A stretch of 64,000 bases of DNA from positions 1-64,000 of the forward strand of contig MKVQ01000034.1 of assembly GCA_001899635.1 (NCBI GenBank). Reading direction: 5' to 3'. Shown here piece after piece: positions 11,883-52,897 of the stretch. Origin of the DNA: Myxococcales bacterium 68-20 (GTDB lineage: Bacteria > Myxococcota_A > Polyangia > Polyangiales > Polyangiaceae). Made by a program: the position numbers and the translations under genes. Position 1 is the first letter of the stretch; the number at the start of each line of letters is the position of its first letter. The notes below the pieces were generated by a model. That model saw nothing but the letters and a program-made list of their open reading frames with translations. It did no database searches and was not told where the DNA came from.

Positions 11883-13141
11883 TGCGCCTCGCAGAAGCCG
11901 AAGTTGCAGCTCTGTCCGGAGCTGCACTCGGCGTTGGACGAGCAGGCCTGGCACGTCGTCGATCCGGTGGCCTCACGATCGAAGGCGCAGCCGCAGGCAC
12001 GCGCCGGCTTGAAGGAAGACATCGCGCCCATCTCGCTCGTGCGCTGCACCCTCATCGCACACGGCGGGACCACGTGTTGCCGGACGGCGGTTCGAATCAG
12101 CTCCACCCCGAGCGGCGGCGGCTCGCTTCCCGCGAGATACGCGATGAGGTCGCGGGCGCGTGGATGCTTCGCGAGGCCCGTTCCGTCGACCTGCGTGAAG
12201 AGGTGAAGCGGGCCCCAGATCGCGTAGCGCCCGTCGCGCACGTTGCGCTTGTCGAGCGGGCGGACATCGGGAAGGTATCCGCACCGCTGGCCGAAGTGCT
12301 GGTAGGCGAGCTGCTTCAGCTCGGGACGAGCCGAATAGTCGGCCGCGAGAATGCCGATCGCCTTGTCGGCATCCGCCTGGGCGATGAGCCCCGAGAGGCT
12401 CGTGAAGATGTTGTCGCTATTGCCGCGGTCGATCCCTCGCCAGCGCTTTGCGTTCACCCCAATGGCGGCGCCGATCATCTGCTGGGTTCCCGAGAGGTCG
12501 TTGCGACGAAAGAGGAACGCATCGTCGAGCCATGGCGCGAGCGTCCCGAGGCCGAACGTCAGGTAAGCCGCCTCGGCGCTGATCGATTGCTCGCGCGAGC
12601 CCTTGTTCACCGCGAACGTCATCGCCTGGATCGGGCCCTGGAAGTCGACGACGCCTTGCGGCAGCCCTGCGCCGCCGAGCCCACACGTCTGAGCGAAGAC
12701 GTCGGAGATCCCGATGTCGGCGATCGTGCCGGCAGCGAGCGTGCACGTCTCTTCCTTGGCGGTCTTGGATCCGGCAGCGAGGGTCGCGCTGTTCGCATCC
12801 CAATAGCTCGCATTCGTCGAGTCGTTGCTCGCCATCGGCGCGCCCGAGAGGATCGCGCTCGCGCCGGTACATGACCCCTGGCTCAGGTAGACGATCGTGG
12901 CTGGACGCAGCGGATCGACGAAGATGGCCGGCGCCAACGCTGCGATCAGCGGCTTCGCTGCAGACGAGCCCGTGACATAGACGACCGTGGGGACGGGGGT
13001 CCCGGTACCAGCATCTGGAGCCACACCGCCGGGCTGGAGCTTCTGCAGTGCCGTGCAGCTCGCAGCGTCGGCATCGTTCGTCGCGAGGAAGGTCGCGGTG
13101 AGCGCGAGGAGCGCGCTTCCGAGGAGCTTCGATTTCTTCAC
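11879..13141 (-). CDS. orphan PstS-like periplasmic binding protein with Cys-rich tail
   Basis: A 420-residue exported protein. After a cleavable signal (ending TNDADA), residues ~50-350 resemble phosphate-type ABC substrate-binding proteins, with VYVTGSSAAKPLI as the usual first ligand-loop region and a later SGTQQMI segment. The C-terminal ~50 residues contain clustered cysteines (CGC, CQAC, CSS..C...C), like the small Cys-rich modules of myxobacterial surface proteins. No permease or ATPase is nearby, so a transport role is doubtful; sensing or binding for the kinase operon is an inference. Start is a GTG with AAGGGGG upstream, one base after the previous stop. Confidence 0.75.
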   Translation of the reverse strand: MKKSKLLGSALLALTATFLATNDADAASCTALQKLQPGGVAPDAGTGTPVPTVVYVTGSSAAKPLIAALAPAIFVDPLRPATIVYLSQGSCTGASAILSGAPMASNDSTNASYWDANSATLAAGSKTAKEETCTLAAGTIADIGISDVFAQTCGLGGAGLPQGVVDFQGPIQAMTFAVNKGSREQSISAEAAYLTFGLGTLAPWLDDAFLFRRNDLSGTQQMIGAAIGVNAKRWRGIDRGNSDNIFTSLSGLIAQADADKAIGILAADYSARPELKQLAYQHFGQRCGYLPDVRPLDKRNVRDGRYAIWGPLHLFTQVDGTGLAKHPRARDLIAYLAGSEPPPLGVELIRTAVRQHVVPPCAMRVQRTSEMGAMSSFKPARACGCAFDREATGSTTCQACSSNAECSSGQSCNFGFCEAQ

Positions 13142-40006: not shown

Positions 40007-40458
40007 GCACCCCGGACACCCCGCTCGAGCCCGCGGTCCGGCAGGATCCGGACACGATCAACCGCCGCGGGATCGCTCTCGTGACGATCGCGAGCATCGT
40101 CATCATGGCGCTCGCCCTCGTAGCGGCGTGGGCCCTGCTCGAGCATTCGCAGCGAGGACGAGAGGTCGAGCGAGCCGTCCCCTCCGCAGCACCGCGCACG
40201 ATCGGCATGCTCGAACAAGCGCCGATCCTCGGCACCGGCCGCGGCCTCGATCTCAGGGCGCGCCAGGAGGCCGACCTCCATCGCTTCGGCTGGGTCGACC
40301 GCGACGCAGGAATCGCTCGCATCCCGATCGAAGACGCCGTGGATCTGCTCGTCGCCCATCCGCTACCGCCGGACCGCCCGCTCGTTCCGCGATCGGGGGC
40401 GAGTAGCGAGCGTGACCGCGATCGTGCTCCAGCGCAGGAGCGAAAGGAGGGGCGCTGA
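40003..40458 (+). CDS. single-helix periplasmic protein of the act-cox operon
   Basis: A 151-residue protein with one membrane helix (residues ~22-44) and a periplasmic part containing GWVDRDAGIARIPIEDAVDLL. That short motif recurs in small membrane proteins of caa3 and Alternative Complex III clusters, so an assembly or accessory subunit role is inferred; the biochemical function is not known. It overlaps actF and ends one base before coxB starts, so it is firmly in the operon. Confidence 0.82.
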   Translation: MSTPDTPLEPAVRQDPDTINRRGIALVTIASIVIMALALVAAWALLEHSQRGREVERAVPSAAPRTIGMLEQAPILGTGRGLDLRARQEADLHRFGWVDRDAGIARIPIEDAVDLLVAHPLPPDRPLVPRSGASSERDRDRAPAQERKEGR

Positions 40459-41513
40459 TGGATATCCTCCGCGCGATTCTCGCGCTCCCGAGCGGGGGCT
40501 CGACCGTCGCCGATCGCATCGATCTCCTCCACGGCTTCGTCATCACCGTGACGATGCTCGTGTCGACGTTCGTCTTCGTCACCGCGGCGTGGTTCACGGC
40601 TCGATATCACCGCAAGCAGGACGACCAGCTCACCGAGAACGTGTCGGCGACGCGCGGGGGAGAGGCCGTCCTCATCGTCGGGATCCTCTCCATGTTCCTC
40701 CTCTGGTGGGTCATCGGCTTCCGGCAGTACGTCGAGGTACGCGACCCGCCGGAGGGCTCGGAGGTCGTCTACGTCGATGCGAAGCAATGGATGTGGAAGT
40801 TCGCGTATGCCGACGGTCGCGTCTCGAACGACGCGCTCACCGTCCCCGTGGGTCGTCCGATCAAGCTGGTGATGACCTCGCGCGACGTCATTCACAGCTT
40901 CTACGTCCCCGGCTTCCGGGTGAAGCAGGACGTTCTGCCCGGTCGCTACACGACCCTCTGGTTCGAGGTGAAGGAGCCGGGCACGTACCCGATCTGGTGC
41001 GCCGAGTACTGCGGCGTGAGCCACTCCCTGATGCGCGGCGAGGTGAGAGCGCTCGGCGCGGACGACTACGCGCGGTGGAAGCGCCAAGGCGACAGGCCAC
41101 CGCCGGACGCGGACTGCGGGCGGGGCCCCGGATCGTGCGGAGACACGAGCCTCGTCGAGCAGGGGCGCCTCGTCGCCGAACGTCGCCAGTGCGTCGCCTG
41201 CCACACGCTCGACGGACAAAAGCACATCGGTCCGACGTGGGCGCGGCTCTACGGCTCCGAGCGCGTCCTCGCCGACGGCCGGCGCGTCATCGCCGACGAG
41301 GGCTATCTCACCCGATCGATGATGGAGCCGACAGCGGACGTCGTCGCGGGCTACCGCGAGGTGATGCCGTCGTATCGGGGCACGCTCACCGCGGGCGAGA
41401 CGTCCGCCCTCGTCGAGCTGATCCGCTCCCTCCGCGACGCCCCCGCGCCGTCCGGCATCACGCTTCCTCGGCTCGAGGTGACGGCGGCGAGCGACGGAGG
41501 GACCTCGCCATGA
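40458..41513 (+). CDS. coxB: cytochrome c oxidase subunit II fused to cytochrome c (caa3 type)
   Basis: A 351-residue protein. Two N-terminal helices (~28-48 and ~73-92) precede the cupredoxin domain with the CuA ligands in CAEYCGVSHSLM. Residues ~225-330 are a fused class I cytochrome c with CVACH and a distal Met (REVMPSY), making this a caa3-type subunit that accepts electrons directly and transfers them through CuA to subunit I. It ends at 41513, followed by the inverted-repeat element. Confidence 0.95.
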   Translation: MDILRAILALPSGGSTVADRIDLLHGFVITVTMLVSTFVFVTAAWFTARYHRKQDDQLTENVSATRGGEAVLIVGILSMFLLWWVIGFRQYVEVRDPPEGSEVVYVDAKQWMWKFAYADGRVSNDALTVPVGRPIKLVMTSRDVIHSFYVPGFRVKQDVLPGRYTTLWFEVKEPGTYPIWCAEYCGVSHSLMRGEVRALGADDYARWKRQGDRPPPDADCGRGPGSCGDTSLVEQGRLVAERRQCVACHTLDGQKHIGPTWARLYGSERVLADGRRVIADEGYLTRSMMEPTADVVAGYREVMPSYRGTLTAGETSALVELIRSLRDAPAPSGITLPRLEVTAASDGGTSP

Positions 41514-41515
41514 CC

Positions 41516-41764
41516 CAATGCCGTTCGGTTGAGCAGAGACGGACTCAGAACGGGGAACAGGGAACGGGAAATGAAACGGGAACAGGGAACAGGGAACAGG
41601 GAACGGGGAAATGAAACGCGAACGGGGAAGTGAAACGCGAACGGGAAACGGGCAAGTGAAACGGGAACAGGCCGGATCTCGCCGTTCCCCGTTCAACTTG
41701 CCTGTTCCCCGTTCCCTGTTCCGTGCTCCGGCATGCATTCGCTCGGCTCATCCGAACGGCATTG
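41516..41764. repeat. 249-bp inverted-repeat element between coxB and coxA
   Basis: The outer ends are a near-perfect inverted repeat: CAATGCCGTTCGGTTGAGC at 41516-41534 and its complement at 41746-41764 with one mismatch. Inside are tandem 7-bp AGGGAAC copies (about 41566-41605) and four AARTGAAACG units on the left, and a right arm CGTTCCCCGTTCAACTTGCC then TGTTCCCCGTTCCCTGTTCCG. That right arm recurs at 52852-52897. Most could fold into a long hairpin in the coxB-coxA mRNA. No protein is encoded. Confidence 0.85.
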
Positions 41765-41768
41765 CTCC

Positions 41769-43448
41769 ATGAGCACGACCCCGCTCGCACCGGCGGCTTC
41801 GCCCGCGCCCGAGGCCTCTCATGCGCCCGGGGCCTCCCCTCGCCCGGTCGCACACCCCAGCTACCTCGGCGTCGACACGACGCTCCGCTCGTGGCTGCTG
41901 ACGACCGACCACAAGCGGATCGGGGTCCTCTACCTGGTGACGCTGCTCGCCACGATGGCGCTCGGAGGCTTCTTCGCGCTCGCGCTCCGCATCGAGCACC
42001 TCACGCCCAACGCGACCATCGTGAGCGCGATGACCTACAACCGCATGTTCACGCTCCACGGCGTGATCATGGTGTGGCTCTTCCTGATCCCGTCGATCCC
42101 GTCGTCCTTCGGCAACTTCGTCCTGCCGATGATGGTCGGCGCGAAGGACGTCGCGTTCCCGCGACTCAATCTCCTCAGCTACTGGATCTTCGTCGCCGGC
42201 TCGATCCTCGTGCTCCTGTCGACGGGCATCGGCGGCATCGACACGGGCTGGACGTTCTATCCGCCGTACAGCTCCATCAGCGCGACCGCCGTTCCGCTCG
42301 CGCTCCTCGGCGTGTTCATCATCGGCTTCTCGACCATCCTCACCGGGCTCAACTTCATCGTCACGACCCACACGATGCGCGCGAAGGGGGTCGGCTGGAT
42401 GCGGCTGCCGCTGTTCGTGTGGTCGATCTACGCGACGAGCATCATCCAGGTCCTCGCCACGCCGGTGCTCGGGATGGTGCTCCTCTTCGTCGTCGTCGAC
42501 AACGGGCTCGGCTGGGGCCTCTTCGATCCGGCGCGCGGCGGCGATCCCGTGCTCTACCAGCACCTCTTCTGGTTCTACTCCCACCCCGCCGTCTACATCA
42601 TGGTCCTGCCGGGTATGGGAGTCGTCAGCGAGGTCGTCGCCAGCTACGCGCGCAAGAACCCGTTCTCGTACAAGGCGATCGCCTATTCGTCGCTCGGCAT
42701 CGCGTTCGTGGGCTTCCTCACCTGGGGGCACCACATGTTCGTCGCCGGGATGAGCAAATTCGACGCCGGAGCCTTCGGTGTTCTCTCGATGCTCGTGGCG
42801 GTGTTCTCCGCGATCAAGGTCTTCAACTGGACCTGGACGCTGAAGCGCGGAGCGGTCGCGCTGAAGACGCCGCTCCTCTACATCTTCGCCTTCCTCTTCC
42901 TGTTCGTCTTCGGCGGGATGACGGGAGTCGCGACTGCGTCGATGAGCCTCGACGTGCACTGGCACGATACGTACTTCATCGTCGCTCACTTCCACTTCAT
43001 CATGGTGGGCGGCACGCTGACCGCGTTCCTCGCGGGGCTCCACTACTGGTTCCCGAAGATGTGCGGGCGCATGTACCCCGAGCGACTCGGGATGCTCTCG
43101 GCGGCGCTCGTGTTCGCGGGCTTCTTCGTGACGTTCTTCCCCCAGTTCCTTCTCGGCAACGCCGGGATGCCACGCCGCTACTTCAACTATCCGCCGCAGT
43201 TCCAGGTGCTCCACATCGTCTCGACGGTGGGCTCGTGGGTGCTCGCCGCCGGCTTGATCCTCACCGCCTTCTACTTCCTCTGGTCGCTCCGCTGGGGCGC
43301 GCCCGCCGGCCCCAACCCGTGGGGCTCACGCTCGTTCGAGTGGCGCACGGCATCGCCTCCCCCGAAGCACAACTTCCGCCGCGAGCCTCCGTTCGAGATC
43401 GATCCGTACGACTACACCCAGCCGCTCCCCGACGAGGTGTACCAGTGA
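41769..43448 (+). CDS. coxA: cytochrome c oxidase subunit I, type A2
   Basis: A 559-residue heme-copper oxidase with about twelve helices. Ligand histidines are present in the first helix pair (LHGVIMVWLFLIP), HPAVY, WGHHMFV and the AHFHFIMVG segment. The helix VI motif is YSHPAVY rather than GHPEVY, the Tyr-Ser version that replaces the proton-channel glutamate and defines type A2 oxidases. The ATG at 41769 follows the repeat element by four bases; the open frame extends upstream into the element but lacks family similarity. Confidence 0.95.
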   Translation: MSTTPLAPAASPAPEASHAPGASPRPVAHPSYLGVDTTLRSWLLTTDHKRIGVLYLVTLLATMALGGFFALALRIEHLTPNATIVSAMTYNRMFTLHGVIMVWLFLIPSIPSSFGNFVLPMMVGAKDVAFPRLNLLSYWIFVAGSILVLLSTGIGGIDTGWTFYPPYSSISATAVPLALLGVFIIGFSTILTGLNFIVTTHTMRAKGVGWMRLPLFVWSIYATSIIQVLATPVLGMVLLFVVVDNGLGWGLFDPARGGDPVLYQHLFWFYSHPAVYIMVLPGMGVVSEVVASYARKNPFSYKAIAYSSLGIAFVGFLTWGHHMFVAGMSKFDAGAFGVLSMLVAVFSAIKVFNWTWTLKRGAVALKTPLLYIFAFLFLFVFGGMTGVATASMSLDVHWHDTYFIVAHFHFIMVGGTLTAFLAGLHYWFPKMCGRMYPERLGMLSAALVFAGFFVTFFPQFLLGNAGMPRRYFNYPPQFQVLHIVSTVGSWVLAAGLILTAFYFLWSLRWGAPAGPNPWGSRSFEWRTASPPPKHNFRREPPFEIDPYDYTQPLPDEVYQ

Positions 43449-52670: not shown

Positions 52671-52741
52671 CCTCGCTGCGATCGATCAAGCGCCGACGGC
52701 CGACGACGATCGCTGCATCCGTTGGCCAGCTCAGCCGGTGA

Positions 52742-52897
52742 GGAAACAGGGAACAGGAAAGGGCAAGTGAAACGGGGAACGGGCACCCTGCCGACTGTAG
52801 GCCGAGCGATTCGCGCTCATCGGCCTCAGGGAAACGGTCGAGCCCTGGCGAGGCCCGTTCCCCGTTCTACTTGCCGGTTCCCCGTTCCCTGTTCCGG
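52742..52897. repeat. second copy of the hairpin repeat family
   Basis: Left arm 52742-52785 (GGAAACAGGGAACAGGAAAG then GGCAAGTGAAACGGGGAACG) and right arm 52852-52897 are near-complementary over ~45 bases, enclosing ~66 bases. The right arm CGTTCCCCGTTCTACTTGCC then GGTTCCCCGTTCCCTGTTCCG matches that of the element at 41516-41764 with two or so differences over ~41 bases. Non-coding. Confidence 0.85.

What the first reader, a model, noticed from the sequence alone, without database searches (positions are those of the whole stretch)
41516..41764. Long inverted-repeat element with terminal repeats inserted in an operon between coxB and coxA
A 249-bp segment starts two bases after the coxB stop and ends four bases before the coxA start. 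It has 19-bp terminal inverted repeats (one mismatch), internal AGGGAAC tandem copies, four AARTGAAACG units and a right arm that pairs with the left. It looks like a MITE or bacterial interspersed mosaic element that settled in an operon. It could also act as an mRNA processing or stability element that sets CoxB:CoxA stoichiometry. The outer repeats were not found at the second copy.
Basis: partly seen in the sequence, partly recalled or inferred. Interest (0 to 1): 0.7.

Follow-up and report, generated by a model that had tools for sequence, protein, structure and literature searches.

The report
Miniature transposon splitting coxB from coxA
A short, gene-less jumping element landed exactly on the four bases shared by two overlapping respiration genes of a myxobacterium, and because it copied its landing site both genes kept their ends while a large predicted RNA hairpin now sits between them.

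Summary
The segment is a MITE: 12-bp terminal inverted repeats (AATGCCGTTCGG; 19 bp with one mismatch), no gene of its own, and 12 other places in the genome with related sequence at E<1e-3. The same ends bound a second core in this genome and a third in a genome of another family of the order. Over 27 TIR-bounded elements the flanks agree at a 12-bp target duplication (z 7.6; 0 of 2000 permutations), and CTAG in the flanks lies only at its centre. The ten best-scoring relatives lack the insert: coxB and coxA overlap there by four bases, ATGA or GTGA. The insertion duplicated that overlap, so coxB kept its stop and coxA its start, but coxA lost the GGAGG 9 bases upstream. The mRNA is predicted to fold into a very stable hairpin (z -7.2) whose base pairs coxB's stop region with coxA's AUG. 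I infer that coxA translation still depends on ribosomes finishing coxB; this is untested. The transposase was not found. In passing: S23/IVP four-helix-bundle genes in this order are often flanked by arrays of 6-8-bp repeats, frequently inverted.

The parts
40458..41513 (+). coxB, cytochrome c oxidase subunit II with a cytochrome c domain
   Evidence: Pfam COX2, Cupredoxin_1, Cytochrom_C
41496..41501 (+). GGAGGG in the 3' end of coxB: inferred ancestral Shine-Dalgarno of coxA
   Evidence: 9 nt before the ATG of the overlap; GGAGG 5-10 nt before the start reported in 5 of 9 relatives listed, at 9 nt in L066; none in L069
41505..41516 (+). left copy of the 12-bp target duplication (TCGCCATGACCC), holds the coxB stop
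   Evidence: 8/12 identical to the right copy; family-wide TSD length 12
41517..41763 (.). the MITE (247 bp from TIR end to TIR end)
41517..41534 (+). left terminal inverted repeat AATGCCGTTCGGTTGAGC
41548..41671 (+). left arm: tandem GAACAGG-type units with four AARTGAAACG units; 75-80 nt longer than in the closest of five other copies aligned
   Evidence: TRF period 7 (locus L065); alignment
41672..41725 (+). conserved right arm, pairs with the left arm
41746..41763 (-). right terminal inverted repeat AATGCCGTTCGGATGAGC (read on the minus strand)
41764..41775 (+). right copy of the target duplication (GCTCCATGAGCA), holds the coxA start
41769..43448 (+). coxA, cytochrome c oxidase subunit I
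   Evidence: Pfam COX1 E=1.6e-138
52741..52896 (+). related hairpin core without TIRs (second copy in the window)

Best explanation
It is a non-autonomous DNA transposon (MITE) of a family with 12-bp TIRs AATGCCGTTCGG, presumably moved in trans by a transposase that makes a 12-bp staggered cut and favours a central CTAG. It landed on the 4-nt coxB/coxA overlap (CCATGAGC). Because the overlap lies inside the 12 bp that are duplicated, one copy kept the coxB stop and the other the coxA start, so no coding sequence was lost (shown by comparison with relatives). The insertion moved coxA away from the GGAGGG at the end of coxB. Inferred and untested: in a shared mRNA the element folds into one long hairpin that brings the coxB stop and coxA AUG side by side, and the two CATG copies pair, closing coxA until a ribosome ending coxB opens the base. 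Translational coupling would thus survive, probably weakened, with RNase III cutting as a possible side effect.
For: TIR and hairpin. Twelve other places with related sequence at E<1e-3. Same TIR on other cores: type B in this genome and a mostly 221-232-bp element in G030 of another family. TIR pattern with at most 1 mismatch: 18 hits in own genome against 0 for the reversed pattern; 12 against 1 in G030. TSD of 12 bp: identity 0.56 against 0.37 permuted, z 7.6, 0 of 2000; exact 12-mer at L052, exact 14-mer at L003/L010; CTAG at the centre in 6 left and 8 right flanks of 27 elements and at none of the other offsets tested. Empty site: the 10 best-scoring relatives of 29 fetched read ATGA (7) or GTGA (3) at the junction. 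coxA AUG predicted paired (unpaired 0.01) with CATG 41509-41512. No sigma-70 promoter-like or terminator-like site in 41400-41900 and no Pfam match in three ORFs that cross the element.
Against: No transposase with these ends was recovered: the six PF01609 matches of the genome lack the TIR in the fetched flanks, and in G030 only about the first 127 bp of a longer element are assembled; the search of 183 genomes scored only 4 candidates per genome. The window's own TSD is only 8/12 identical with centre CATG, not CTAG; 14 of the 27 elements have 6 or fewer of 12 identical (one of these, L003, has the exact 14-mer). No strain-level polymorphism was seen, so present mobility is not shown. The functional steps rest on single-sequence folding; there are no expression data.
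Confidence: 0.85

Rival explanations
1. A functional mRNA processing element: RNase III cuts the hairpin and separates coxB and coxA messages so that their levels differ. The MITE origin stays, but the element is retained because it is useful.
For: Very stable predicted hairpin. RNase III cleavage of mRNAs at MITE TIRs is described for Correia elements (review PMC10969869, section 12 read). TIRs here are almost perfect while the window's TSD has decayed to 8/12, which would fit upkeep of the stem.
Against: No such insert at this junction in the ten best-scoring relatives, so no long-term conservation at this site. Other copies of the family sit at unrelated places. No expression data.
Confidence: 0.3
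2. A REP/BIME-type or other palindromic repeat spread by a RAYT-like (single-strand) transposase rather than a TIR/TSD transposon.
For: Palindromic multi-copy element; hairpin cores also occur without TIRs in this genome.
Against: A fixed 12-bp target duplication with a central CTAG is not expected of that mechanism (general knowledge).
Confidence: 0.04
3. The inner hairpin (inverted arrays of short tandem repeats) is derived from an IVS-like element whose full form carries an S23/IVP four-helix-bundle gene; the TIRs are a later or separate coat.
For: Four-helix-bundle loci in the order often have period-6-8 arrays nearby, inverted in about a third; cores occur without TIRs; a four-helix-bundle gene of G009 (L136/L034) has GTTCCCC-type arms.
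Against: No significant four-helix-bundle remnant in the own-genome TIR and arm loci scanned (G030 copies were not scanned); a 20-residue resemblance seen by eye in L017 is not significant; units differ from locus to locus, so homology cannot be shown.
Confidence: 0.12

Closest known systems
Chunjie MITE of Geobacter uraniireducens (Chen et al. 2008; seen only in passages and the reference list of the review PMC10969869)
   Same: 235-bp MITE in a bacterial operon, conserved TIRs and direct repeats, many intergenic copies; the cited title says it did not disturb the operon structure (the review's text says it disrupts one copy of the operon).
   Different: Different organism; its TIR and TSD sequences were not compared here because the paper is not held.
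BrickBuilt MITE of Porphyromonas gingivalis (PMC4596501, passages)
   Same: MITE whose interior is a tandem repeat array.
   Different: 23-nt units, TIRs like those of IS5-family elements, no fixed TSD length; here 7-nt units arranged as inverted arms, 12-bp TSD.
Correia elements of Neisseria (review PMC10969869, section 12)
   Same: Short TIR elements next to genes; transcripts holding them can be cut by RNase III.
   Different: RNase III processing is not tested here; TIR sequences were not compared.
23S rRNA intervening sequences (IVS) of Coxiella and others (PMC4990558, passages)
   Same: Inverted terminal repeats forming a long stem in a transcript.
   Different: IVS sit in 23S rRNA and that of Coxiella holds an S23 ORF; this element lies between two protein genes and holds no such ORF.
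IS4-type insertion sequences (recalled: 10-13-bp target duplications)
   Same: Length of the duplication.
   Different: No transposase linked to the TIR was found; the assignment is from memory and not tested.

Membership tests
MITE | Terminal inverted repeats | tested here: met
   12-bp perfect, 19 bp with one mismatch
MITE | Target-site duplication of fixed length | tested here: met
   12 bp, z 7.6 over 27 elements; window copy 8/12
MITE | Short, no transposase gene | tested here: met
   247 bp; three ORFs that cross it have no Pfam match
MITE | Multiple dispersed copies | tested here: met
   12 further places at E<1e-3
MITE | Empty site in relatives | tested here: met
   10 of the 10 best-scoring junctions overlap by 4 nt; 19 lower-scoring or cut loci not used
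MITE | TIRs shared with an autonomous element | tested here: inconclusive
   longer element with the same TIR in G030, only about 127 bp assembled; none found at the six PF01609 matches of the own genome
REP/BIME | Spread without target duplication, RAYT partner | tested here: not met
   12-bp duplication; RAYT genes not searched
23S rRNA IVS | Location in 23S rRNA | tested here: not met
   lies between coxB and coxA
23S rRNA IVS | S23/IVP gene inside | tested here: not met
   the window locus L001 and the other own-genome TIR loci scanned gave no significant hit; none of the five PF05635 matches of the genome lies in a TIR element
IS4-type element | DDE_Tnp_1 transposase between the TIRs | tested here: inconclusive
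   6 PF01609 matches in own genome, none with the TIR in the fetched flanks; other transposase families not searched

The most novel reading that the evidence does not exclude
The element's core belongs to a large, undescribed class of hairpin elements of Polyangiales in which inverted arrays of 6-8-bp tandem repeats, with a unit private to each locus but matched between the two arms, flank an S23/IVP four-helix-bundle gene. Some lost the gene and became MITE-like hairpins. The arms would be rewritten in concert (for example by fold-back copying), the four-helix-bundle protein would bind the hairpin, and insertion into gene overlaps would leave genes intact and install a removable RNA hairpin between them.
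Probability: 0.13. Interest if true: 0.78.

Novelty: new member of a known kind. Interest (0 to 1): 0.46.

Why it matters
It shows how a transposon with a long target duplication can enter the tightest possible junction in an operon, a 4-base gene overlap, without damaging either gene. It also gives a natural test of what happens to translational coupling when a 250-nt hairpin is placed between stop and start in a core respiratory operon. The preference for CTAG, which in these genomes is found at the stop codon of a long frame about half the time (37 of 79 sites), may be a simple way for a selfish element to do little harm. The side observation on four-helix-bundle genes and inverted short-repeat arrays may open a question about IVS-like elements outside rRNA.

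Tried and rejected
Homology of distant hits: the G025 and G031 matches that I looked at (six loci) are plain GGGAAC-type hexamer runs, and I saw no TIR in them; rejected as relatives. The right-arm core gave no exact match in genome contigs, where the own genome may be left out.

Own slips: the coxA translation was one base out of frame (corrected); one search did not turn minus-strand loci and was replaced.

Autonomous partner: the own PF01609 matches lack the TIR. A TIR pair 2 kb apart on C5 encloses a group II intron, a nested insertion, not a transposase. In G030 five contig ends run into a longer element (C325 lacks the first 11 nt of the TIR); its inside was not found. A search of 183 genomes of the order, scoring only 4 candidates per genome, gave only weak 22-31-nt matches outside G030, and the plasmid collection none. 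One of those, 27 nt in G045 (L234), lies in what looks by eye like a recombinase gene; too weak to use.

Stop-codon targeting as a separate property: 22 of 24 elements have the stop of a frame of at least 80 codons within 40 nt, against 27% of random positions; 12 of 24 have the stop of a frame of at least 150 codons inside the 12-mer, against 203 of 7326 random 12-mers, but 37 of 79 CTAG-centred 12-mers elsewhere do too. The CTAG preference alone explains it. For some searches I dropped three of the 27 elements by eye (window 12350-12563, L016, L056: probable false pairs or nested) and re-paired L047.

TSD length: a first pass with all 54 candidate pairs, several right ends per element, gave z 5.0 at 12 and 2.5 at 14; one search keeps the pair with fewest TIR mismatches.

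Known RNA: no Rfam match at its gathering score in 41300-42000; sub-threshold hits are mostly eukaryotic microRNA hairpins. Four-helix-bundle remnant in L017: not significant. Literature: the listings of searches (1 to 15 titles each, some out of thousands of papers) showed no paper on this element, on MITEs of Labilithrix, or on four-helix-bundle genes flanked by inverted short tandem arrays; the library holds open-licence papers only, so this is weak evidence of absence.

Full report
What was reported is there. coxB ends at 41513 and coxA starts at 41769. Between them lies a segment with 19-bp inverted ends (one mismatch), a tandem GAACAGG-type left arm with four AARTGAAACG units, and a right arm complementary to the left. 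As RNA it folds at -125.4 kcal/mol against -90.1 (sd 4.9) for shuffles, z -7.2, 0 of 200 as good. 0 of 60 mononucleotide shuffles of the element have such a 19-bp inverted repeat. A scan of 41400-41900 found no sigma-70 promoter-like and no terminator-like site.

It is a family. In the same 11.9-Mb genome, 12 other places match at E<1e-3. I call those with the GGGAAC-type core type A. The window copy and five others that I chose align over the two ends and the right arm, though L012 lacks most of the right end. The window copy is the longest of the six (247 against 119-174 bp) because its left arm carries 75-80 nt of extra tandem units. A second set, type B, has the same TIR but another core (AACAGGAAGGCGGGAAG ... 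CTTCCCGCCTTCCTGTT), with 13 places at E<=1.1e-18 for one copy as query, that copy included. The TIR pattern with at most one mismatch occurs 18 times in this genome, against 0 for the reversed control, and 12 times against 1 in G030, a genome of another family of the order. Eleven other genomes of the 58 searched have 1-2 hits, about what the control gives. In G030 the pairs bound elements with yet another hairpin core: 12 elements, 11 of them 221-232 bp and one of 164 bp.

It transposes with a 12-bp target duplication. I paired TIRs by TIR mismatches alone, without regard to the flanks, requiring one of the core motifs inside, and got 27 elements (15 in this genome, 12 in G030). Some are probably false pairs (window 12350-12563, L016, the intron-bearing L056, and L047 with a wrong right end). 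Even so, flank identity at n=12 is 0.56 against 0.37 for permuted pairs (z 7.6, 0 of 2000). It holds in each genome on its own (z 4.5 and 5.0). Of the other lengths tested from 4 to 16 only 14 stands out (z 2.8), which owes something to one exact 14-mer at L003 (the same place as L010). Best cases: GGCGCTAGCCTC on both sides of L052; 10 of 12 at L188, L200, L208 and L209. Against this, 14 of the 27 have 6 or fewer of 12 identical (L003 with its 14-mer among them). CTAG occurs at the exact centre in 6 left and 8 right flanks (10 of 27 elements) and at none of the other offsets tested. The window copy has TCGCCATGACCC / GCTCCATGAGCA, 8 of 12, centre CATG.

The empty site is visible in relatives. 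coxB was searched in 58 genomes (own included); 50 had a match, and 29 loci of relatives were fetched besides the window's own. In the ten best-scoring (L066-L075, coxB identity 44-81%) the coxB stop is written ATGA (7) or GTGA (3), i.e. coxA starts inside it. The script listed a coxA start at -4 in six of these; in the other four it printed no junction because the coxA alignment began at or before the coxB stop, and I read the overlap directly, in frame with that alignment. L076 starts inside coxB at a contig end and was not used. The remaining 18 are lower-scoring coxB genes: 12 show an in-frame coxA start 2-81 nt behind the stop, two show none, four were not resolved. The two nearest relatives are, by matching contig coordinates, Labilithrix sp. 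ACE_MYX5 and ACE_MYX7. coxB and coxA of the window end and start at the homologous codons, so the insert added 247 bp plus one 12-bp duplication and took away no coding sequence.

What it does now is inferred. In the window the ancestral junction would have had GGAGGG at 41496-41501, with 9 nt between GGAGG and the start codon. L066 has GGAGG at the same distance, and L068, L070, L074 and L075 have it at 5-10 nt. L067 and L072 also contain GGAGG, although the script reported another motif first; L071 has only GAGG and L069 none. After insertion, coxA is preceded by GCATTGCTCC, without a recognisable ribosome site. The predicted fold of 41480-41830 brings the coxB stop and coxA AUG to the two sides of the hairpin base, and pairs CATG 41768-41771, holding the coxA AUG, with CATG 41509-41512 (AUG unpaired probability 0.01). 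A ribosome ending on coxB would open exactly this pairing. I therefore propose that coupling is retained through the hairpin, with reduced efficiency (probability about 0.35 for this part). RNase III cutting is the main alternative or addition; it is on record for Correia MITEs in Neisseria (PMC10969869, section 12 read). The TIR stem is near perfect while the TSD has decayed to 8/12, which would fit selection on the stem, but one copy cannot prove that.

The preference for CTAG brings insertions to stop codons. Twelve of 24 curated elements have the stop of a frame of at least 150 codons within the 12-mer, against 203 of 7326 random 12-mers; CTAG-centred 12-mers elsewhere do so as often (37 of 79), so the CTAG preference is sufficient as a cause. 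At a gene overlap the duplication gives each gene its own copy of the shared bases. The window shows this for a codirectional ATGA overlap, and L174 shows open frames of at least 497 and of 426 codons ending in the two TAG copies from opposite sides.

The transposase is missing. The six PF01609 matches of this genome have no such TIR in the fetched flanks; other transposase families were not searched. Five G030 contig ends enter a longer element and stop within about 130 bp (four of them show the TIR). A search of 183 genomes of the order found it in no other genome, but scored only 4 candidates per genome. A 2-kb TIR pair at L095 holds a group II intron (Rfam RF02005, E 1e-30; RVT_1 E 4.8e-40) and is a nested insertion.

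Known relatives. [quoted passage not shown] title and a short description seen in the review; the paper itself is not held). A tandem array inside a MITE is known from BrickBuilt (passages). So this is a new family of a known kind; the exact duplication of a start/stop overlap is a neat case rather than a new class.

A side observation may be more novel. PF05635 (S23/IVP four-helix-bundle) genes occur in 35 of 58 genomes. I took 34 loci, chosen by score and not by flanks; 31 have at least 250 nt on each side. In 11 of the 31, the upstream flank matches the reverse complement of its own downstream flank with score >= 20, against 1.9% of mismatched pairs and 0 of 130 control windows cut from 26 coxB loci; direct matches of that score occur in 5 of 31. 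Arrays of period 6-8 with at least 4.5 copies lie within 600 nt on one side at least in 22 of 31 and on both sides in 10 of 31, against 3 and 0 of 130 control windows. The unit differs between many loci but the arms match: ACGTGG/CGTCCA at L113, TCGTAC/CGAGTA at L133, CCGAGC/TCGGGC at L124. Against this, L131 and L146 have direct instead of inverted arrays, 20 of 31 fail the inverted test and 9 of 31 have no array by the test. The control windows overlap and come from one gene neighbourhood. Whether the MITE cores belong to this class is unproven: no four-helix-bundle remnant was found at a significant score in the own-genome loci scanned.

Noticed in passing
L113, L119, L121, L124, L130, L133, L136, L137, L139, L140, L143 (PF05635 loci, own genome and other Polyangiales): S23/IVP four-helix-bundle genes are often flanked by reverse-complementary stretches, many of them arrays of 6-8-bp tandem repeats with a unit of their own (11 of 31 inverted pairs against 0 of 130 control windows; arrays on at least one side in 22 of 31 against 3 of 130).
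   Followed up: partly
L095 4230-6276 (G000 C5:230729-232775): A group II intron with reverse transcriptase lies between a left and a right end of the TIR family: a nested insertion.
   Followed up: partly
L238-L249 (own genome): Type B hairpin cores (AACAGGAAGGCGGGAAG ...) also occur without the TIR and with other outer palindromes; L239 and L241 carry a longer insert with shared stretches inside the hairpin.
   Followed up: partly
G030 contig ends C82, C130, C132, C325, C457 (L192, L194, L201-L203): A repeated longer element with the same end, broken by the assembly, is the best lead to the transposase.
   Followed up: partly
L116 and L117 (own genome): Two related four-helix-bundle genes share a palindromic leader (GCCGGGCCGAGACGCCCGGC) just upstream of the start codon.
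   Followed up: no
L011 (G000 C42:200748-200977): Two left ends in tandem separated by a direct repeat GTTCGCCTAAGGCCG: one copy inserted beside or into another.
   Followed up: no
L181 (G005 C24:155649): The same TIR in another genome of the genus, followed by an interior with CCGGATCC-type palindromic stretches; single hit, no right end identified.
   Followed up: no
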